Positions 5,846 to 27,728 of a stretch of 64,000 nucleotides of DNA are shown here, one piece after another. The stretch is from NCBI RefSeq assembly GCF_016862975.1, contig NZ_BONZ01000045.1, forward strand, positions 124,001 to 188,000, read 5' to 3'. Positions within the stretch are counted from its first letter, which is position 1. Each line of letters opens with the position of its first letter. The position numbers and the translations under genes are program-made. The notes under the pieces are model-generated. The model was not told where the DNA came from, ran no database searches, and was given only the letters and a program-made list of their open reading frames with translations. The DNA is from Rugosimonospora africana (lineage in GTDB: Bacteria; Actinomycetota; Actinomycetes; Mycobacteriales; Micromonosporaceae).

Positions 5846-5966
5846 CCGCCCCGACGCGTCCGCGTTCACAGCGGGATGGCCGGTTCCTGCGCCCTCGCGC
5901 CCGTCGATCATCGGGTACGGCATGCCGATCGCATAGAGTCGGCGATGACCGGAGGGGGTGGTCACG

Positions 5967-8380: not shown

Positions 8381-8395
8381 CGAACCGGTCCAGCA
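8381..8395 (-). promoter_or_regulatory. Candidate LacI operator, regulator-proximal copy
   Basis: This is the exact 15-base inverted copy of box 8119-8133, and the similarity extends a few bases further. It lies about 60 bp upstream of the LacI start, so autoregulation is plausible. Confidence 0.5.
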
Positions 8396-8404
8396 TTGCC
8401 CTAT

Positions 8405-8420
8405 GGTTCAATGCTGAACC
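8405..8420. promoter_or_regulatory. Dyad GGTTCA-n4-TGAACC before the LacI gene
   Basis: Perfect 6-bp arms (8405-8410 and 8415-8420) lie 35 bases upstream of the LacI ATG. The arms share GGTTC with the GACCGGTTCGA boxes, so this may be a further half-related site or the site of another regulator. Confidence 0.35.
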
Positions 8421-8455
8421 GGGAACCAGGTAGACCACAGCGAGGTCCACTGACC

Positions 8456-9613
8456 ATGGCCAAGGTGACGATCCGTGACATCGCCCGTCTGGCAGGCGTG
8501 TCAAAGTCGACGGTGTCGCTCGTCCTCAACGGTCGGCCCCGCGTCGACCCCGAGACCCGCGCCAAAGTGTTGCAGGTGATGGCCGAGCACAACTACGTCC
8601 CGAGCGTCGCGGCCACTGCTCTGGGCAAGCGCGGGGGCAGCCCGTTCATCGGCCTGATCGTGCCCGGTCTGACCTGGCGCATCGTCGCGTCCATCAACTA
8701 CGGCATCGCTTCCGTGGTGGAACGCAGCAAGTACGAAATCATCCTCTACACCAGCACCAACGACCGCGACTACAGCGGAGTCGTGGACCGCGTTCTCGGC
8801 GCCAACCTGGTGTCCGGCCTGCTCGTGGTCAACCACAACCAGCCGATGGAACCGCTGGTCGAGCTGTACGGCGCCGGACTGCCCGTCGTTCTCATCAACA
8901 CGCTGGGCGTGCATTCCGACCTGCCGTCCGTCGAGTCGGACAGTTACGCGGGCGCGCGCAGCGCCGTCGCGCACCTGTTGGAACTCGGTCATCGGCGGAT
9001 CGCGTGCGTCCAGGGGCCCCCGCAATTTCCGTGCTGCGTCAACCGCAACAAGGGCTACACGGACGCGCTGACACATGCCGGGATCGCGATCGACGCCGAC
9101 CTGATCAGGCCGGGCGGTTTCCGGCCCCAGGACGCCTACCGGCACACGGTTGACCTGTTGTGCGGACCGGACCGGCCGACAGCCATCTTCGCGCACAACG
9201 ATCCGATGGCCTACGCGGTTCTCGACGCCGTCGACGAGTGCGGGCTTCGGGTGCCGGACGACATCTCGGTCGTCGGGTTCGACGACATCGTGTCCTCGGC
9301 GCACGTGCGGCCTCCGCTGACCACGGTCCGCCAGCCGTTCGAGGAGATGGGCGCACAGGCCGCCGAGATGCTGTTGAGCGCTCTTTCCTACGAGTCGGGA
9401 CCACCCAGGCACGTGCGGATGCCCACCGAACTGGCGATCCGAGCCAGCGCCGGCCCGGTCCCCCGCCGTCGACGGCGAGTGCCCAAGCAGCCTGCCGATC
9501 TCCACCATGCCATCGGTCCGAAGCTCACCGACGCGATGTACACCTCGGACGCGTCATCGCCGTCGACCGGACTCGATCCAGCCGGCACCTTGTCGACGAA
9601 GCCGTCAGGCTGA
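8456..9613 (+). CDS. LacI-family transcriptional repressor (glycan response)
   Basis: A 385-residue protein with an N-terminal LacI helix-turn-helix ([22 protein letters not shown], hinge helix around [10 protein letters not shown]), followed by the periplasmic-binding-protein-like effector domain ([54 protein letters not shown]). The ATG at 8456 places the DNA-binding helix at the very N-terminus, as is normal. The C-terminus carries an extra tail of about 55 basic and low-complexity residues beyond the usual end (IRASAGPV). Divergent orientation and shared boxes indicate it controls the GH5 gene, with an oligosaccharide as likely inducer. Confidence 0.85.
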
Positions 9614-9735
9614 TCGCCACGACACTGCGACTTGACGCAACCCGAGTACGTGATGGGCGACCTCATCGGGCCGAATCAGTCGTCAGCGCCCCGCCTGTCG
9701 TGCAAGCGCCGCCGGCGATCGGACACGGCTGTCGT

Positions 9736-18554: not shown

Positions 18555-19838
18555 ATGTTATTCGCGCATCGCCGAGCGGTCCCCGTGGCCGCCGCCATCG
18601 CTGCCATCGCCGCCCTGCTCCTGACAACCGCATGCGGCAATGGGTCCTCCGGATCCTCGGGAGGAGTCGTTCACCTGAGCATGCTCACCGGGTTCACCGG
18701 ACCCGACGAGCCCTCTTACCAGACGCTGGTCAAAGAGTTCAACGACACGCACCCCGACATCCAGGTCACCATGACTGTCGAGCCGTGGGCCACGGTCGGG
18801 CAGAAGCTGCCGGCGTCCTGGGCCACCGGCCAAGGCCCCGACCTGGCCACGCCGAGTTCCGATCCAGGGTCGATCTTCAGCTACATCAAGACGAACTCGG
18901 TGCTGCCCCTGGACCCCGCGGTGGGTTCCGGAGCGGACCAGATCGACTCGGCGGCCTTCCCGCCGTCGGTCAAGGCCGCGTTCACCGTCGGCGGGAAGCT
19001 CTATGCGGTCCCGGCGAACATGGCCACCCTCGCGCTCTACTACAACAAGGACATGTTCGCCGCCGCCGGCATTTCCACGCCGCCGACGACCGAGGATGAC
19101 CTCATCGCCGATGCCAAGAAGCTGACCATCGGCGCAGCGGGCAAGCCATCGCAGTACGGGATATCGCTGGCGGACAACAACACCATCCAGATGTGGCCAG
19201 TTCTGCAGTGGATGAGCGGTGGCGACATCCTCGACAGCAACAACTGCGCCGCCGTCAACAGCGCCGCCAGCGTCTCGGCTCTGACCACCTGGAGCCAACT
19301 CGTGGCCAAGGACCACATCAGCCCGGTCGGCCAGGCCGGAGCTGACGCCGACACCCTGTTCGCCTCGAAGAAGGCGGCGATGGAGATCAACGGGCCGTGG
19401 GCCGCTGCCGGCTTCAAGTCCGCCGGCATCAACCTGGGCATCGCCCAAGTCCCGGTCGGCTCCGCTGGCCCGGTGACACTTGCCTCGACGGTCCCGCTGA
19501 TGATCGAGCGGACCACCAAGCATCCCGCCCAGGCGAAGACCTTTCTCGCCTGGTACACGAGCAAGACCGCGCAGGAGAAGTTCTCCCAGGTCTCCGGCTT
19601 CCCGCCGGCGCGTACCGATCTAGGCAACAGCACCGCCGGCGACCCTGCGGTGTCGGTCTTCGCCCAGGCGCTGCCGCACGCGAAGCTCTACCTCGCCGGG
19701 CAGAGCGTCGCCTCTCAGATCGACTCCGATGTCTACGTTCCGTTCATTCAGAAGATCGAGCGAGGCGCCGGCGTGCAGTCCGCGGCCGACGACGCGGCCA
19801 AACAGATCAACAAGCTGACCGGCTGCAAGCAGAACTGA
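18555..19838 (+). CDS. Sugar ABC transporter substrate-binding lipoprotein
   Basis: 427 residues. The N-terminal signal ends in a lipobox (LLTTACGN), so the protein is anchored at the outer face of the membrane. It matches the cluster of carbohydrate-binding proteins served by MalF/MalG-type permeases: SMLTGFTGPDEPSYQTLVKEFNDTHPDIQVT, KLYAVPANMATLALYYNKDMFAAAG split over lobes, AAMEINGPWAAAGFK, and the late hinge MIERTTKHPAQAKTFLAWY. With the GH51 gene downstream, arabino-oligosaccharides are the best-guess ligand. The gene starts 54 bases after the LacI stop. Confidence 0.9.
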   Translation: MLFAHRRAVPVAAAIAAIAALLLTTACGNGSSGSSGGVVHLSMLTGFTGPDEPSYQTLVKEFNDTHPDIQVTMTVEPWATVGQKLPASWATGQGPDLATPSSDPGSIFSYIKTNSVLPLDPAVGSGADQIDSAAFPPSVKAAFTVGGKLYAVPANMATLALYYNKDMFAAAGISTPPTTEDDLIADAKKLTIGAAGKPSQYGISLADNNTIQMWPVLQWMSGGDILDSNNCAAVNSAASVSALTTWSQLVAKDHISPVGQAGADADTLFASKKAAMEINGPWAAAGFKSAGINLGIAQVPVGSAGPVTLASTVPLMIERTTKHPAQAKTFLAWYTSKTAQEKFSQVSGFPPARTDLGNSTAGDPAVSVFAQALPHAKLYLAGQSVASQIDSDVYVPFIQKIERGAGVQSAADDAAKQINKLTGCKQN

Positions 19839-19896
19839 CGATCCCCGTCGGGCCGGGACGCGACGCACCGCTCGCGTCCCGGCCGGGAGGAGCACC

Positions 19897-20808
19897 ATGA
19901 CGACCAACCGAATACCCACCGCGCAGCCCGCGCGGCGTCGATCGGCGCGGCGCTTCAACAGCGCGTACCTGTTCATCGCCCCCAGCCTCGTGCTCATCGC
20001 GGTCTTCATCGCCGAGCCGATCGTGCAGTCCGGCTGGATGAGCCTGCACGACTGGATGGTCGGTGAAAGCAGCCACCGGTTCGTCGGCTTCGCCAACTAC
20101 ACCCGACTGTTCCACGACTCCCGGTTCTGGAACGCGCTGCGCGTCACCGTCGTCTACACGCTCGTGGTGTCGGTCGGACAGGTGGTGCTGGGATTGGCCA
20201 TCGCCTCCCGCCTGCGCCGGACCACCTGGTACTCCACGCTGCTGCGCACCGCGTACTTCTTTCCCTTCATCGCGTCGCTGGTCGTCGTCGGCATCATCTG
20301 GAAGTTCCTGCTGGACCCTCAGGTAGGGCTGGTCGACGCGTGGCTGGCCGCGGTCGGCGTCTCGCCACCGGCCTGGTTGCAGTCGACCGCGCTGGCGCTG
20401 CCGACGGTGATGGCCGTCGGGATCTGGAAAAACGTCGGCTTCACCATGATCGTGCTGCTGGCGAGCATGCAGCAGGTGCCCCGCGACCTGTACGAGGCGG
20501 CGGCGCTGGACGGAGCCGGCGCGTGGCGCCAGTTCCGCAACGTCACCCTGCCGGCGCTGCGGCCCGCCCTGCTGTTCACGACGGTCATCGCGACCGTGAA
20601 CGGCCTGCAGTTGTTCGACCTGGTGTTCTCGATGACCAGCGGCGGCCCGATCTTCCACACCGAATCCGTCGTCATGTACCTGTACCAGAAGGGGTTCGTG
20701 GAGTTCCAGATGGGCTACGCAAGCGCCATTGCCTGGGTGCTCTTCGTGATCATCCTGGGCATCTCGGCGGTCCAGCTGCGAGTGCTGAGGTACCGCGATG
20801 TCGACTGA
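19897..20808 (+). CDS. Sugar ABC transporter permease (MalF/UgpA type)
   Basis: 303 residues with six membrane spans. The ABC-permease EAA loop is LYEAAALDGAGAWRQFRNVTLPAL, which docks the ATPase. The N-terminus (TNRIPTAQPARRRSARRFNS) is cytoplasmic and basic. A GGGAGGAG ribosome site precedes the ATG. Its 3' end overlaps the next permease by 11 bases. There is no ATPase gene in the cluster; in actinomycetes such importers commonly use a shared ATPase (MsiK) encoded elsewhere. Confidence 0.9.
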   Translation: MTTNRIPTAQPARRRSARRFNSAYLFIAPSLVLIAVFIAEPIVQSGWMSLHDWMVGESSHRFVGFANYTRLFHDSRFWNALRVTVVYTLVVSVGQVVLGLAIASRLRRTTWYSTLLRTAYFFPFIASLVVVGIIWKFLLDPQVGLVDAWLAAVGVSPPAWLQSTALALPTVMAVGIWKNVGFTMIVLLASMQQVPRDLYEAAALDGAGAWRQFRNVTLPALRPALLFTTVIATVNGLQLFDLVFSMTSGGPIFHTESVVMYLYQKGFVEFQMGYASAIAWVLFVIILGISAVQLRVLRYRDVD

Positions 20809-21718
20809 GACCGTGACGTCCCTGCGTGCGACGGGCGCACGGCCGCCCCGACGCGCGCGTGGGACGGGAGGGCGTGCGACCGCAGTGCGCGCCGCCGGTG
20901 CCGCCACCCGCGCCGGCGCCGCCCTGTCCTGGGTGGTTATCGGCGTCGGTGGCCTCGCGATGCTGGTGCCGTTCCTCTGGATGCTCGGCGTCGCCTTCCG
21001 CACCAGTCCCGACCTGTACGCCGATCCGGCCCGGCTGTGGCCGGTGCACTGGACGTTGCACGGGGTGCGCGCCGTCGTCGACCAACTCCCGTTCGGCCAG
21101 CTCATCCTCAACACCTTCGTCTTCGCCGGCGGCGCGACGCTGCTGTTGCTGCTGTTCGACTCGATGACCGCATTCGCCCTGTCACGGCTGCGGTTCCGCG
21201 GGCAGAACGCGGTGTTCGTGCTGATCCTGGCCACCCTGATGGTGCCCTTCCAGGTGACCGTGGTGCCGGTTTTCCTGACCCTGTTCCACCTCGGCTGGCT
21301 CAACTCGTACCAAGGACTCATCATCCCCCGGGCGACCAGCGCACTGGGTATCTTCCTGCTGCGACAGGCGTTCCTTTCGCTGCCCCGTGAGCTCGACGAC
21401 GCATCACGGATCGACGGTGCGGGCAACCTCACGCTCTACTGGCGCATCATCCTGCCCAACGCGAAGCCGGCCCTCGCGTCGCTGTTCATCATCCAGTTCG
21501 CCGCGCTGTGGAACGACTTCCTGTGGCCGCTGGTGGTCACCAACGACGTGCACATGCAGACCCTGCCGGCCGCGCTGACGCTGTTCTCCAGCCAATCCGG
21601 AGTGGACCACGCCGCACTGATGGCCGGCGCCGCGATCTCCCTCGCCCCGCTGGCCATCGCCTTCATCGCCTTGCAGCGCTACTTCGTCCAGGGTGTCGCC
21701 AACAGCGGCATCAAGTGA
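20798..21718 (+). CDS. Sugar ABC transporter permease (MalG/UgpE type)
   Basis: 306 residues, six membrane spans, and an EAA-type loop LDDASRIDGAGNLTLYWRIILPN. The N-terminal 45 residues are an unusually long, Arg/Ala-rich cytoplasmic tail before the first span (AALSWVVIGVGGLAMLVPFLWML). It overlaps the MalF-type gene, consistent with a 1:1 heterodimeric channel. The GH51 gene follows immediately. Confidence 0.9.
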   Translation: MSTETVTSLRATGARPPRRARGTGGRATAVRAAGAATRAGAALSWVVIGVGGLAMLVPFLWMLGVAFRTSPDLYADPARLWPVHWTLHGVRAVVDQLPFGQLILNTFVFAGGATLLLLLFDSMTAFALSRLRFRGQNAVFVLILATLMVPFQVTVVPVFLTLFHLGWLNSYQGLIIPRATSALGIFLLRQAFLSLPRELDDASRIDGAGNLTLYWRIILPNAKPALASLFIIQFAALWNDFLWPLVVTNDVHMQTLPAALTLFSSQSGVDHAALMAGAAISLAPLAIAFIALQRYFVQGVANSGIK

Positions 21719-21750
21719 CCACAGTGATCGAACAGAAATCGGAGACAGGT

Positions 21751-23259
21751 GTGTTCACCTGCACAGCAACCATCGACCCGGCCTTCGTCATCGCACCGGT
21801 TCCGCACCGCCTGTTCGGCTCCTTCGTGGAGCACATGGGCCGCAGTGTCTACGGCGGCATCTATGAACCGGGGCACCCGGAAGCCGACGTCAACGGTCTG
21901 CGGCTGGACGTCGTCAAGCTCACCAAGGAGCTGGGCGTCAGCGCCGTGCGGTACCCCGGCGGCAACTTCGTGTCAGGCTACCGGTGGGAAGACGGGGTCG
22001 GCCCGCGCGAGCAGCGGCCGGTCGCGCTCGATCTGGCCTGGCGATCGCTGGAGCCCAACACCTTCGGTCTCAACGAATTCATGACCTGGGCACGGCAGAC
22101 CGAAGTCGAACCCATCATGGCGGTGAACCTCGGTACCCGGGGCGTCGAGGACGCCTGCAACCTCCTGGAGTACGCCAACTTCCCCGGCGGTACCCGCTAC
22201 TCCGACCTGCGCATCGCCCACGGCGTACGGGAACCGCACAACATCCGCACCTGGTGCCTCGGCAACGAGATGGACGGCCCCTGGCAGATCGGCCAGAAGA
22301 CCGCCACCGAGTACGGCCGGCTGGCAGCCGAGACCGCGAAGGCGATGCGCCGCGTCGACCCGGACATCGAGCTGGTCGCCTGCGGCAGCTCCAACGAGCG
22401 CATGCCCACCTTCGGCTCCTGGGAGGCCACCGTCCTCGACGAGGCGTACGACGTGGTGGACTACATCTCCCTGCACGCCTACTTCGAACAGCACGGCGAC
22501 GACCGCGTCGGCTTTCTGGCCTCGGCCGACACGATGGACCGCTTCATCGAGGGAGTCATCGCCACCTGCGACCACATCGGAGCCAAGAAGCGGTCCCGGC
22601 GCAGGATCAACCTGTCGTTCGACGAGTGGAACCTGTGGTACGAAAGCCGGTTCGTCGGCCAGGACCGCCTCGACTGGGCCCGCGCGCCGCGCCTGATCGA
22701 GGACGAGTACACCGTGGAGGACGCGGTCGTGCTCGGCAACCTGTTGATGAGTCTGCTCAGACACAGCGACCGGGTGACCATCGCGTGCCTCGCCCAGCTC
22801 GTGAACGTCATCGCGCCGATTCGCACCGAACCCGACACCGGTGCCTGGCGGCAGACCATCTTCTACCCGTTCGCGCTGACCGCCCGGCACGCACGCGGCG
22901 AGGTGCTTCGGGTCGCGGTCGACTCCCCCACGCTGTACTCCAGGACGCTCGGCGACGTGTCCGCCGTGGATCTCACGGCGACGCGGGAGCCGGACAGTGG
23001 CGACATCGCCGTGTTCGCGGTCAACCGCGATGAGCACCAGTCGGCCCGGCTACGGCTGCGGATGGGCATCGACGGCGCGCACGAGGTCGTCGAGCACGTC
23101 GTGCTGGGCGGCGATGACCTGCTCGCGACGAACTCCAAGGAGACGCCCGGCCGGGTCATCCCGCGGTCCAGCACCCGGCACGGAATCGAGGACGGCTTCC
23201 TCGACGTGGAGCTGCCACCGGTGTCCTGGTCGATGATCCGCACGACGCCCATCCGGTGA
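21751..23259 (+). CDS. GH51 alpha-L-arabinofuranosidase, intracellular
   Basis: About 502 residues, the family's usual length, with no signal peptide, so it acts on imported oligosaccharides. The catalytic acid/base is E173 (LGNEMDGPW) and the nucleophile is E292 (SFDEWNLWY). Conserved N-terminal blocks are FGSFVEHMGRSVYGGIYEPGHP, RYPGGNFVSGYRWEDGVGP and LGTRG. GTG 21751 is chosen because it lies 5 bases after GGAGA and leaves the usual short lead before IDPAF; GTG 21715, overlapping the permease stop, is also in frame. It removes terminal arabinofuranosyl units from arabinan or arabinoxylan fragments brought in by the upstream importer. Confidence 0.92.
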   Translation: MFTCTATIDPAFVIAPVPHRLFGSFVEHMGRSVYGGIYEPGHPEADVNGLRLDVVKLTKELGVSAVRYPGGNFVSGYRWEDGVGPREQRPVALDLAWRSLEPNTFGLNEFMTWARQTEVEPIMAVNLGTRGVEDACNLLEYANFPGGTRYSDLRIAHGVREPHNIRTWCLGNEMDGPWQIGQKTATEYGRLAAETAKAMRRVDPDIELVACGSSNERMPTFGSWEATVLDEAYDVVDYISLHAYFEQHGDDRVGFLASADTMDRFIEGVIATCDHIGAKKRSRRRINLSFDEWNLWYESRFVGQDRLDWARAPRLIEDEYTVEDAVVLGNLLMSLLRHSDRVTIACLAQLVNVIAPIRTEPDTGAWRQTIFYPFALTARHARGEVLRVAVDSPTLYSRTLGDVSAVDLTATREPDSGDIAVFAVNRDEHQSARLRLRMGIDGAHEVVEHVVLGGDDLLATNSKETPGRVIPRSSTRHGIEDGFLDVELPPVSWSMIRTTPIR

Positions 23260-23316: not shown

Positions 23317-26253
23317 CTACCGCCGGGACGGCGCCGCGGCATCCAGGTCCGCAAGCCGCGCCCGCACCGCCGCGGCCTCGGGGTGCTGCGTCCCGTCCAG
23401 GATGTTCAGGGCCTGCCGCCATGATGCCCGGGCCGCCGCGAGGTCACCGGCGGCGCGGTACGTCTCGCCCAGGCGGCTCAGGCTGGCGGCCTGGTAGTAC
23501 TTGTCGCCCAGGCCGCGGCGCAGCCGCACGGCTTCGGTGTACGCCGCCACGGCCCGCTCGTAGCGACCCAGTTGGTGGTGGATGTTGCCCAGGCTGTCCC
23601 AGGTCTCCGCCTGCCCGACCACGTGCTCCAGTTCCCGGTGCAGGGTCAGCGCCTGCTCGCAGGTGACCAGGGCCTGCTGGTGGTCCCCGAGCCGCACCTG
23701 CAACCAGCCGATGGCGGCGAGCGCGTCGGCCTGGCCGACCCGGTGCCCCGTACTCTCGTGCAGGTCGAGCGCCCGCCGCGCGTGTTCGAGCGCCTCCCGG
23801 TGCCGGCCCTCGCGCTCGGCGACGATCGTCAGGCTGTACTCGGTGTGCCCCGTGCCGGTCTGGTCGCCGGCGCGCCGGTACAGGTCGAGGGCGATGTGCA
23901 GCTGGTCGCGCGCCACGTCGAACTGCCCGAGCCGGATGCAGGCACGGGCCAGGCTACGGCGGCACACCGCCTCCGCGGCCGGATCCGCCAGCCGGCGGGC
24001 GGCCTCGATCGCGTCCCGCTGCAGCGCGGCCCAGTCGTGCCACAGGCTGCGCCGATCCAGGAAGGTGGCCGCCGCCCAGGCCAGCTGCCACGCGTGTGCG
24101 TCGAAGCCGTACGCGGCGGCCTGACCGGCGGCCGACACCAACGCCAGGTACTCGGCGGTGAACCAGGCCATGGCCTCGTCGTACCCGGACAGCGGTGTGG
24201 AGACGACGGCGCGGGTCGCGGCCGGTGGCTGCACCGGGTCCCGGCGCGGGTTGAGCAGGCGGTCGGCCGCGTGCGCGGTGTGTAGGTAGTAATCGAGCAT
24301 CCGGCGCACGGCGGCCCGACGCCGTGTGGTCGAGTCGGTGGCGGCCTGCTCGGCGGCGTAGTCGCGCAGCAGGTCGTGTGCGGCGAAGCGGCCGGGTACC
24401 CGCTCCTCCAGCAGGTGGGCGCCGGCCAGCTCGGCGAGCAGCCGCCGCGCCTCGGGCAGCGTGAGCCCGCCGAGGCTGGCGGCGGCCGGTACGCCGATGT
24501 CCGGCCCGGTATGCAGGCCGAGCAGCCGGAACAGCCGGGCCACCGGCCTGCCGAGCGCCCGGTAGGACCAGGAGAACACCGAGCGCACGTCGACCGCCGG
24601 GTCCGGGCCGGACAGCCGGTCCAACCGCTCCGGCCCGCCGGCCAGCTCCGCGGCCAGAGTGGCCAGGCTGAACTGCGGATGGGTGACCGCGCGGGCCGCC
24701 ACGATCGCCAGCGCCAGGGGCAGCCGGGCGCACCGCGCGATGATCTCGTGAGCGGCCTGGCTCTGCTCGGCCAGCCGCGCGCTGCCCAGGCGTCGCTGGA
24801 GCAGGTGCCAGGCGTCGGCGGCGGGGAGCAGGTCCAGCGTGACCGGCTGCGCCCCGGCGGCGATCAGGCCGACGAGTGCGCCGCGGCTGGTGACCACCGC
24901 CGCGCAGCCCGGCGAGCTGGGCAACAGCGGGCGTACCTGGCCGGCGTCGCGGGCGTTGTCCAGCAGTACGAGTACCCGCCGCCCGGCCAACCGGCTGCGG
25001 TAGAGGGCGGCCTGGGCGTCGGAGGCGGCGGGCACCTGGTGTGCGGGCACCTGCAAGGCATCGAGGAATCCGCGGACCACAACGGCCGGGTCGACGGCCT
25101 CGCCGTCCGGGCCGTAGCCGCGCAGGTCGGCGTAGAGCAGCCCGTCCGGGAAGCGGTCCCGCGCCCGGTGCGCCCAGTGCACCGCCAGCGCGGTCTTGCC
25201 GATCCCCGCGGTACCGGAAACGACCACGATCCGGCTACCGCCCTGCCCGACCGGGCCGGTCCGGCCGTCCGGACCGTCCCGGCCGGGCGGCGGCAGCAGT
25301 GAGTCTAATGTGGACAGCTCAGCGATCCTGCCCACGAACCCCGGCACGTCGGCCGGCTGCTGTGCGGGCCGGATGGCCTGCGCCGCTGCGCCGCCGGAAG
25401 CCTGGGAACCCTCGCTCCCCGACGCCGGTCGCTCCGGCGCTTCGCGCAGCAGGTCGGCCCGCGCCGCCGCCAGCTCCGGGCCGGGCGCCACACCGAGTTC
25501 GTCGCGCAGCCGGCGCCGGATGCCGTCGAACACGCCGAAAGCGCGGTCCCGCCGGCCGGCCGCGCGGTAACAGCGCATCAGTTGCGCGTGCACCGCCTCG
25601 TCGAAGGGGTGGGCAGTGGACACCTCGGTCAGGATCGGCAGTGCCTGAGCCGCGACGCCGGCTCCGCGCGCCGCCGAGGCGTACCGCAGTACCGCCGCGC
25701 GGTGCTCCTCGATGAGCGCGCGGACCCTCGGATGGCCGGTCGCGCCCGCGGCTTCGGGCAGCGGCGGCCCGTGCCACAGGCCCAACGCCAGGCCCAGCAG
25801 TGCCACGGTCCGCTCCGCATCGCCGCGCTGGCCGCCAGTCACATCGGCACCGTGCCGTCCGCCCTCGCCGGGTCCGCTCGCACCGTACCGGGCGTCCGCG
25901 GCGCCGACGGCTGCCTCGGCCAGCAGGCGCCGGAACACGCTCACGTCGACGGCGTCCTCGGGCAGGCGCAGCGCGTACCCCGTGCCCACCGCGGGGAGCA
26001 CCTCGCTGGGTGCGTGCGGACGCCGGGCGGGCTCCAGGAGACGGCGCAGGTGCTTCACGTAGGTCTGGATCACATTGGTCGCGCTGGCCGGCGGCCGCTC
26101 CCCCCACAGCGCGTCAACGAGTTCGGATCGGGCCAGGGGCTGACCGTCGGCCAGCGCCATTACGCCCAGCAGCGCCCGCTGCCCGGCCGGACCGAGGTCC
26201 AGTTCCGTGGCGTCGCGCCAGGCCCGGACCGGGCCGAGGACCTGCAACCACAT
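23317..26253 (-). CDS. AfsR/SARP-family transcriptional activator (SARP-NB-ARC-TPR)
   Basis: 978 residues from ATG 26253. Domains in order: an OmpR-like winged helix (WLQVLGPVRAW, GQRALLGVMAL, SELVDALWGERPP), the bacterial transcriptional activation domain to about residue 260, a linker, an NB-ARC-type ATPase with P-loop GTAGIGKTAL near residue 346 and LVLLDNARDAGQVRPLLP, then TPR-like repeats to the C-terminus (GNIHHQLGRYERAVAAYTEAVRLR style). This is the AfsR architecture, usually an activator of secondary metabolism or development. It is divergent from the secreted NucA/NucB-like gene, and the gap contains SARP-style direct repeats oriented toward that gene. Confidence 0.9.
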   Translation of the reverse strand: MWLQVLGPVRAWRDATELDLGPAGQRALLGVMALADGQPLARSELVDALWGERPPASATNVIQTYVKHLRRLLEPARRPHAPSEVLPAVGTGYALRLPEDAVDVSVFRRLLAEAAVGAADARYGASGPGEGGRHGADVTGGQRGDAERTVALLGLALGLWHGPPLPEAAGATGHPRVRALIEEHRAAVLRYASAARGAGVAAQALPILTEVSTAHPFDEAVHAQLMRCYRAAGRRDRAFGVFDGIRRRLRDELGVAPGPELAAARADLLREAPERPASGSEGSQASGGAAAQAIRPAQQPADVPGFVGRIAELSTLDSLLPPPGRDGPDGRTGPVGQGGSRIVVVSGTAGIGKTALAVHWAHRARDRFPDGLLYADLRGYGPDGEAVDPAVVVRGFLDALQVPAHQVPAASDAQAALYRSRLAGRRVLVLLDNARDAGQVRPLLPSSPGCAAVVTSRGALVGLIAAGAQPVTLDLLPAADAWHLLQRRLGSARLAEQSQAAHEIIARCARLPLALAIVAARAVTHPQFSLATLAAELAGGPERLDRLSGPDPAVDVRSVFSWSYRALGRPVARLFRLLGLHTGPDIGVPAAASLGGLTLPEARRLLAELAGAHLLEERVPGRFAAHDLLRDYAAEQAATDSTTRRRAAVRRMLDYYLHTAHAADRLLNPRRDPVQPPAATRAVVSTPLSGYDEAMAWFTAEYLALVSAAGQAAAYGFDAHAWQLAWAAATFLDRRSLWHDWAALQRDAIEAARRLADPAAEAVCRRSLARACIRLGQFDVARDQLHIALDLYRRAGDQTGTGHTEYSLTIVAEREGRHREALEHARRALDLHESTGHRVGQADALAAIGWLQVRLGDHQQALVTCEQALTLHRELEHVVGQAETWDSLGNIHHQLGRYERAVAAYTEAVRLRRGLGDKYYQAASLSRLGETYRAAGDLAAARASWRQALNILDGTQHPEAAAVRARLADLDAAAPSRR

Positions 26254-26280
26254 GACGCACCGCCCGATCGCACGGAGGCG

Positions 26281-26300
26281 TGGACCGCAAGCTCGGTCCA
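26281..26300. promoter_or_regulatory. Inverted repeat TGGACC-n8-GGTCCA
   Basis: Perfect 6-bp arms at 26281-26286 and 26295-26300 in the SARP/nuclease gap, overlapping the first SARP direct repeat. It may be a second regulator's site or simply part of the repeat array. Confidence 0.3.
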
Positions 26301-26336
26301 GCATCTGTCCAGCGCCCGTCCAGAGAAATCTACCAG
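26296..26336 (+). promoter_or_regulatory. SARP-type box: three GTCCAG repeats at 11-bp spacing plus -10
   Basis: GTCCAG starts at 26296, 26307 and 26318, exactly one helical turn apart. A -10-like TACCAG follows at 26331-26336, seven bases after the last repeat. SARP regulators bind heptameric direct repeats at 11-bp periods placed about 8 bp before the -10 in place of a -35. The promoter points to the secreted NucA/NucB-like gene at 26427. Confidence 0.65.
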
Positions 26337-26426
26337 CATGAATCGAAACGTCATGGTACGGACGCGGCGCGCGCCCGGCACCGGACGCGCACCACGCCTG
26401 CCATGTAGAACCCGAGAGGAGCACGT

Positions 26427-27728
26427 ATGCGCCTGCGCATGGTGACGGTCGCCGCCACGGCGGCCCTCGCGCTGCTGGCCACGGCCGGCCCGGCGTTCGC
26501 CGGGACCGGATCCGCCGCGCCGCCCGGCCCCGCCGCCCGGGTGGTGCCGCTGACGCTGCCGCATGTGGACAGACCGACCTCGATCAGGGCGGCGTCGGTC
26601 TCGCCGCACGCCACGAGCGACTGCGGTTCGGTGCGGGCAAGGCTGCACGACTATGCCGCCCGCGGCCAGCGCGCGGTGGCCTGTGTGTCGACGGTACCGG
26701 CCACCGCCGACCAGCGGTCGGCGGCCCGGCTAGCGCCGGGGGCGGTGCCCCACTCGGCCGACTTCTGCTCCACCATCGACAACGGAGACTGGGCGCTGAA
26801 CAGGACGGAGGCGTGCTCCCAGGGCCACAACATCTACGAGTCCATCATCGATCCGGAGACCGGGGAGATCGTCGGCACCGCTACCCTGTCGGTCGCGCAG
26901 GACATCCTCCTCCAGACCAGCAGCGGGCTGTTCACCGAGAACGACACGATCGTGTGGCTCACCGCGACCGGCGTGGCCACCGCCGCCCGTACCCTGACCT
27001 TCACCGGGTCATGCAGTGACAACTGCAGCGCCACGGTCGGTACCCGCACCGCGCCGATCGCACTGGGGCAGACCGTATCGGCGGCCTTCGTCTACGACGA
27101 CGAACCGGGGACCCGAGTCGAAACGACCGGCATCACCAACACCTTCTTCTGGACCGTGCCGCCCGGAGTCATCCCCGAGGGTCGGGTGAGCTGGTCCGGA
27201 CCGGGCACCATCAGGTGCGACGGGCAACTGGCCAACCAGAACGCGGGCTGCGTGTTCCCGGAGTTCTCGCCGGTGCTCAGGCTGTCGCTGTCCATCCAGG
27301 GCGCGGGCGCGGCCAACGTGGCGGTCGGCGAGTCCTTCCTGCCCGACGGCTTCGGCTCCGCGCAGCCGCTGCACCGGGAGGCGGACGACGACACGGTGAC
27401 CAGCAACCGCAACGCCATCTGTAACGACGGGACCTTCTTCCCCACCACGTTCGTCAGCAACGACAGCTGCGACGAGTACGCCTTCGCCAGCAGCCAGGAG
27501 AGCGGTGCCTCGTTCGGCCTCACCGGCCTGTCGTGCGCCGAAGCGGTACCGTTCCAGGCGAACGGGCAGTGGGTGGTGCAGTTCTTCTCCTATGTGGGCA
27601 ACGAGCGATGCCTGCGGGGGCACGTACCGCTGGACCAGAACCAGGCGGTCGGCTCGGTCCTGGGTACCCTCGTCCGCACCGACCGAATCCTGGACGGCGA
27701 CGGCTACTACGTCTCCATCGCCCCCTAG
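26427..27728 (+). CDS. Secreted protein with NucA/NucB-like deoxyribonuclease domain
   Basis: 433 residues; ATG after AGGAG. A Sec signal peptide is clear (MRLRMVTVAATAALALLATAGPAFAG). The middle is a beta-rich region with paired Cys (GSCSDNCSATVG). The C-terminal 130 residues resemble the NucA/NucB domain: READDDTVTSNRNAIC, the key SCDEYAFASSQESGA (family form CDEYPFAST-EGG), VPLDQNQAVGSVLG and RILDGDGYYVSI. NucB-type enzymes are extracellular, biofilm-degrading DNases. The Pro and Thr of the consensus are changed (YAFASS), so activity is not certain. Control by the divergent SARP regulator is likely. Confidence 0.72.
   Translation: MRLRMVTVAATAALALLATAGPAFAGTGSAAPPGPAARVVPLTLPHVDRPTSIRAASVSPHATSDCGSVRARLHDYAARGQRAVACVSTVPATADQRSAARLAPGAVPHSADFCSTIDNGDWALNRTEACSQGHNIYESIIDPETGEIVGTATLSVAQDILLQTSSGLFTENDTIVWLTATGVATAARTLTFTGSCSDNCSATVGTRTAPIALGQTVSAAFVYDDEPGTRVETTGITNTFFWTVPPGVIPEGRVSWSGPGTIRCDGQLANQNAGCVFPEFSPVLRLSLSIQGAGAANVAVGESFLPDGFGSAQPLHREADDDTVTSNRNAICNDGTFFPTTFVSNDSCDEYAFASSQESGASFGLTGLSCAEAVPFQANGQWVVQFFSYVGNERCLRGHVPLDQNQAVGSVLGTLVRTDRILDGDGYYVSIAP

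What the first reader, a model, noticed from the sequence alone, without database searches (positions are those of the whole stretch)
26254..26426. SARP-style direct repeats place a secreted NucA/NucB-like gene under an AfsR-like activator
Seen: GTCCAG at 26296, 26307 and 26318, exactly 11 bp apart, with TACCAG seven bases further on, oriented to the secreted gene and next to a divergent SARP-NB-ARC-TPR gene. Established: SARPs bind heptad repeats at 11-bp period just before the -10. Inference: this SARP governs an extracellular nuclease-like protein, unlike the usual secondary-metabolite targets, perhaps linking development or DNA scavenging to a signal sensed by the STAND ATPase.
Basis: partly seen in the sequence, partly recalled or inferred. 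Interest (0 to 1): 0.72.

Follow-up and report, generated by a model that had tools for sequence, protein, structure and literature searches.

The report
SARP switch for a secreted nuclease-like protein
An AfsR-like regulator very probably switches on, through three GTCCAG repeats, a neighbouring gene for a secreted DNase-like protein; the same DNA box and regulator type recur across actinobacteria, mostly in front of secreted proteins rather than antibiotic genes.

Summary
GTCCAG stands at 26296, 26307 and 26318, 11 bp apart, facing a secreted NucA/NucB-like gene and divergent from a SARP-NB-ARC-TPR gene. It is the only perfect period-11 hexamer triplet in the window and the only such box in the 11.1-Mb genome.

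Comparison raises it from a pattern to a well-supported operator. Loci were chosen only because they encode a SARP with a similar DNA-binding domain: 26 of 60 carry the box, against 0 of 20 less similar SARPs and 0 for the reversed pattern. Only an 11-bp period gives sites in number. A -10-like hexamer follows at a fixed 10-bp gap in 23 of 23 triplets not chosen for it. This moves the window's -10 to CAGCAT at 26334-26339, not 26331.

Of 59 boxes, 48 precede genes for signal-peptide-like proteins (about 15 unrelated families; background 28.5%). NucA/NucB-like genes in three other genera carry the box and three more loci a degenerate version, at 23-29% protein identity.

Best reading: a large-SARP subfamily whose GTCCAG triplet operator mostly serves exported proteins; here a one-target switch. 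DNA binding, nuclease activity and the signal sensed are untested. I found no description of this in the papers searchable here.

The parts
23317..26253 (-). Large SARP (winged helix + BTAD + NB-ARC + TPR), 978 aa; the putative activator
   Evidence: Pfam Trans_reg_C, BTAD, NB-ARC and TPR hits above cut-off; Walker A at 347; ATG at 26253
26296..26301 (+). GTCCAG repeat 1 of the operator
26307..26312 (+). GTCCAG repeat 2
26318..26323 (+). GTCCAG repeat 3, promoter-proximal
26334..26339 (+). Inferred -10 hexamer CAGCAT, 10 bp after repeat 3; inferred transcription start near 26346 by analogy with the AfsR/afsS register
   Evidence: A at position 2 and T at position 6 at a 10-bp gap in 23 of 23 unselected triplets and 48 of 54 in all; AfsR register from PMC10936776
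26427..27728 (+). Secreted NucA/NucB-like protein, 433 aa: signal peptide, middle region of unknown fold, C-terminal DNase_NucA_NucB domain (residues 316-428)
   Evidence: PF14040 30.6 bits against cut-off 23.8; D349, E350 and N405 invariant among relatives

Best explanation
The 26254-26426 region is a promoter-operator for the NucA/NucB-like gene. The SARP domain of the divergent 978-aa regulator binds the GTCCAG triplet side by side, the two promoter-proximal repeats taking the place of the AfsR box where a good -35 is missing. It recruits RNA polymerase to the weak -10 CAGCAT at 26334-26339. The NB-ARC and TPR parts presumably hold the SARP domain back until a signal and ATP release it, as shown for AfsR. 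In this genome the switch appears to have one target, an exported protein with an apparently intact NucA/NucB active-site motif. The module is one member of a wider subfamily of SARPs with the same operator, which mostly controls exported proteins. Shown here: operator anatomy, its co-occurrence with the SARP subfamily, its conservation before NucA/NucB-like genes, and the exported nature of the targets (by a sequence heuristic). Inferred: binding, activation, the ATP switch and nuclease activity.
For: The box is unique in window and genome. Of 60 loci picked by DNA-binding-domain similarity alone, 26 carry it, against 0 of 20 outgroup SARPs and 0 with the reversed pattern; in a wider set 31 of 68 against 2 of 43. 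Repeat period: 35 sites at 11 bp, 0 or 1 at every other period from 7 to 15. Gap to the -10: 23 of 23 unselected triplets at 10 bp. NucA/NucB-like genes elsewhere carry it: L244 (1 mismatch, divergent SARP), L260 (1), L249 (2), and degenerate forms in L048, L245 and L246, all three next to a divergent SARP. Of 56 boxes with a called downstream gene, 48 targets are signal-peptide-like against 28.5% background. The repeat aligns with the AfsR half-site at the contacted T and C positions (PMC10936776).
Against: No binding, transcript or mutant data. More than half of the subfamily loci show no strong box within reach. Degenerate boxes (4 mismatches) in L048, L245 and L246 are individually weaker, although the control rate is about 0.002 per 300 positions. 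L249 and L260 have the box but no subfamily SARP within about 6 kb. Residue 68 is His where AfsR has the contacting Arg92. Some boxes precede non-secreted genes (L083 LanKC-like, L019 PLP enzyme, L028 LuxR-like, L120 and L162 further SARPs, L213).
Confidence: 0.85

Rival explanations
1. The triplet is a real SARP operator but is read by another SARP in the genome; the adjacent SARP controls something else.
For: The genome has 7 matches to this DNA-binding domain at E<=1e-15. Boxes occur without an adjacent SARP in L249 and L260.
Against: The box tracks the DNA-binding subfamily, and in many loci it lies within 250 bp of the SARP start, facing away. The genome has a single box, next to this SARP.
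Confidence: 0.08
2. Same operator and switch, but with a specific purpose: an inducible extracellular attack or defence system in which the STAND-SARP senses a challenge and releases an exchangeable exported effector, here a DNase. (This is a reading of function, compatible with the best explanation.)
For: STAND sensor architecture; very diverse exported targets (NucA/NucB, CBM2, peptidase inhibitor I36, DUF4394, unknown families); NucA/NucB-like genes are also paired with a STAND-TPR protein bearing an XRE-like helix-turn-helix (L250).
Against: No immunity gene seen beside the nuclease-like gene; several targets look like binding or structural proteins rather than toxins; no phenotype data.
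Confidence: 0.3
3. Chance repeat without regulatory role.
For: Short repeats do occur by chance in G+C-rich DNA.
Against: No shuffle reproduces it; strict period, fixed -10 gap and phylogenetic recurrence.
Confidence: 0.02

Closest known systems
AfsR and the afsS promoter of Streptomyces coelicolor (PMC10936776)
   Same: Same domain order (SARP, NB-ARC/NOD, TPR); 11-bp direct repeats overlapping the -35 upstream of a weak -10; half-site of the type GTTCA against GTCCA here; first target (afsS) is not itself a metabolite gene.
   Different: Not the AfsR equivalog (518.6 bits against cut-off 1430); three repeats here, two in afsS; recognition-helix Arg92 is His68; target is an exported nuclease-like protein; divergent single target.
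PimR and the pimM promoter (SARP-LAL, PMC5930380)
   Same: Three repeats at 11-bp period; one dedicated target gene.
   Different: Heptamer CGGCAAG; LAL rather than NB-ARC-TPR C terminus; operator does not overlap the -35; target is a metabolite-cluster regulator.
NucA/NucB secreted DNases of Bacillus (PMC5758888)
   Same: PF14040 domain; Asp-Glu and Asn of the active site appear kept (D349, E350, N405); exported.
   Different: 433 aa with a large extra middle region; no sequence match to any solved structure; next to a SARP; catalytic activity unknown.

Membership tests
Large SARP (AfsR-type architecture) | Trans_reg_C winged helix + BTAD + NB-ARC + TPR | tested here: met
   each of the four above its Pfam cut-off
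Large SARP (AfsR-type architecture) | Intact nucleotide-binding P-loop | tested here: met
   Walker A at 347, VLVLLDN at 427
AfsR equivalog | NCBIfam NF053617 above cut-off | tested here: not met
   518.6 bits against 1430
SARP operator | Direct repeats at 11-bp period at a fixed distance from the -10 | tested here: met
SARP operator | Binding and activation by the SARP | not testable with these tools
   needs gel shift, footprint or transcription assay
DNase NucA/NucB (PF14040) | Pfam domain above gathering score | tested here: met
   30.6 against 23.8 bits
DNase NucA/NucB (PF14040) | Active-site Asp, Glu and Asn | tested here: met
   D349, E350 and N405 invariant in alignments; correspondence to NucB D93, E94, N117 is by motif, from PMC5758888
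DNase NucA/NucB (PF14040) | NucB-like three-dimensional fold | tested here: inconclusive
   AlphaFold2 model pLDDT 53.5; fold search uninformative
DNase NucA/NucB (PF14040) | DNase activity | not testable with these tools
   needs purified protein

The most novel reading that the evidence does not exclude
A whole subfamily of STAND-SARP regulators, found in Micromonosporaceae-like and Pseudonocardiaceae-like genomes and in Streptomyces, Lentzea, Microtetraspora and Catenulispora, uses one conserved operator (GTCCA at 11-bp period, 10 bp before the -10) to drive exchangeable exported effectors, forming a sensor-triggered extracellular arsenal in which the NucA/NucB-like protein is one weapon.
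Probability: 0.3. Interest if true: 0.82.

Novelty: new variant of a known kind. Interest (0 to 1): 0.62.

Why it matters
SARPs are known mainly as activators of antibiotic clusters. Here a sequence-defined operator, tied to a recognisable DNA-binding subfamily, predicts targets in unexplored genomes, and those targets are mostly exported proteins, many of unknown function. That gives a direct way to ask what large SARPs sense and why actinobacteria tie a STAND ATPase switch to single exoproteins.

Tried and rejected
Scan of named genomes for P0002 found no relative; whole-genome search with its alignment failed twice and was replaced by a PF14040 search. No PDB sequence match for P0002; the AlphaFold2 model was too weak, and its fold search gave only beta-sandwich look-alikes. 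Literature searches for GTCCAG with SARP, SARP with secreted proteins, and AfsR with NucA gave nothing relevant. Relaxed search of the own genome for a wider regulon gave 16 matches against 10 for the control, so a multi-gene regulon with this box was rejected. Upstream of the own-genome NucA/NucB paralog (L045) no box was found. No terminator pattern after the gene.

Full report
Observation. The three GTCCAG copies lie exactly where reported, 11 bp apart, in the 173-bp gap between two divergent genes. They form the only perfect period-11 hexamer triplet in the window; 100 shuffled windows contain none. The exact triplet occurs once in the 11.1-Mb genome, with other near matches at the level of the reversed control, and a looser box with a -10 is also found once.

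The two genes. The minus-strand gene (23317-26253) is a large SARP with winged helix, BTAD, NB-ARC and TPR; it scores far below the cut-off for AfsR itself and keeps a P-loop. The plus-strand gene (26427-27728) encodes a 433-aa protein with a signal-peptide-like start and a C-terminal NucA/NucB domain. Its D349, E350 and N405 are invariant among relatives and appear to match the residues needed for catalysis in Bacillus NucB (PMC5758888). The next gene downstream is on the other strand, so the NucA/NucB-like gene is probably transcribed alone.

Does the box belong to this SARP? I first searched 355 genomes of the same family for the exact triplet: 18 matches against 6 for the reversed control, 4 of those 6 in one genome. 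Many matches lay beside SARPs with 33-49% identity to the window's. To avoid circularity I then chose loci only by similarity of the SARP DNA-binding domain. Of 60 such loci (52-72% identity) 26 have the box at no more than 2 mismatches of 17; 20 loci with less similar SARPs have none, and the reversed pattern gives none. In a larger tally excluding loci chosen for the box, 31 of 68 subfamily SARPs and 2 of 43 others have a box nearby; of those two, one is a second SARP in a subfamily locus and the other is a borderline subfamily member. Four named genomes outside the family with a subfamily SARP also have it: Catenulispora sp. MAG, Lentzea waywayandensis, Microtetraspora malaysiensis and Streptomyces lycii.

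Operator grammar. With the -10 gap fixed, period 11 gives 35 sites and other periods from 7 to 15 give 0 or 1. In triplets not selected for a -10, all 23 have A at position 2 and T at position 6 of a hexamer exactly 10 bp after the third repeat. In the window this hexamer is CAGCAT, 26334-26339. The AfsR structure paper gives an afs box at -40 to -19 with two 11-bp repeats, contacts to a T and a G-C pair of each half-site, and a weak -10 (PMC10936776). Setting GTCCAG on that half-site gives the same -10 and a start near 26346. This register is inference.

Conservation before NucA/NucB-like genes. Among NucA/NucB loci fetched from the family, L244 has the same divergent SARP with the box at 1 mismatch; L260 (1 mismatch) and L249 (2 mismatches) have the box with no SARP within about 6 kb. 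L048, L245 and L246 have the divergent SARP with a degenerate box (4 mismatches; control rate 0.0017 per 300 positions). The aligned boxes share CCA in all three repeats, while the proteins are only 23-29% identical to the window's. The link has therefore outlasted most of the protein sequence.

Targets as a class. Fifty-nine boxes were collected; 56 have a called gene downstream and 48 of these score as signal-peptide-like under a simple heuristic, against 28.5% of other genes in the same loci. They fall into about 18 unrelated families, 15 of them exported, including CBM2, DUF4394, peptidase inhibitor I36, a BNR-repeat protein and several without a Pfam family. Exceptions include a LanKC-like synthetase (L083), a PLP enzyme (L019), a LuxR-like regulator (L028) and other SARPs. 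Loci from one genus are not independent, so the family count is the safer figure.

Mechanism and rivals. The best reading is activation of one exported protein by a STAND-gated SARP. AfsR work shows that NOD and TPR inhibit and ATP relieves (PMC10936776); whether that holds here is untested. What the exported protein does (scavenging, development, competition or defence) cannot be decided from sequence. Pairing of NucA/NucB-like genes with other STAND regulators (L053 with an unrelated SARP DNA-binding domain; L250 with an XRE-like N terminus) suggests that STAND control of such exoproteins is a recurring theme.

Limits. Signal peptides were predicted by a home-made rule; gene starts are approximate. 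LanKC, PLP, LuxR and XRE labels on relatives were read from the sequence by eye, not from a family search. Literature coverage was open-access papers only.

Noticed in passing
L020, L022, L023, L025 upstream of the SARP start (near 5900): Other large SARPs (Nonomuraea, Streptomyces) have GCTGA-type repeats at 11-bp period upstream of their own gene (CGCTGA three times exactly in L023), suggesting self-activation through a different half-site.
   Followed up: partly
L250 6029-9682; L247 6217-9877: NucA/NucB-like genes divergent from NB-ARC-TPR proteins without a matching SARP DNA-binding domain; in L250 the N terminus looks like an XRE-type helix-turn-helix.
   Followed up: partly
L053 7798-11844: Another divergent NucA/NucB-like and SARP pair whose SARP has an unrelated DNA-binding domain and no GTCCAG box.
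   Followed up: partly
L045 (own genome C48) 8381-9658: A second, full-length NucA/NucB-like paralog (about 40% identical) in the same genome; no SARP match in the 18 kb around it and no box seen upstream.
   Followed up: partly
L083 6680; L019 1463: The same box precedes a LanKC-like lanthipeptide synthetase and a PLP enzyme, so the subfamily has some likely secondary-metabolite targets too.
   Followed up: no
L168, L183, L186, L188: Single SARP loci with two boxes, one facing a CBM2-like and one a DUF4394 exported protein.
   Followed up: partly
window 18555-23259: Sugar ABC transporter genes followed by an arabinofuranosidase (ArfA-like), convergent with the SARP gene; no box there.
   Followed up: no
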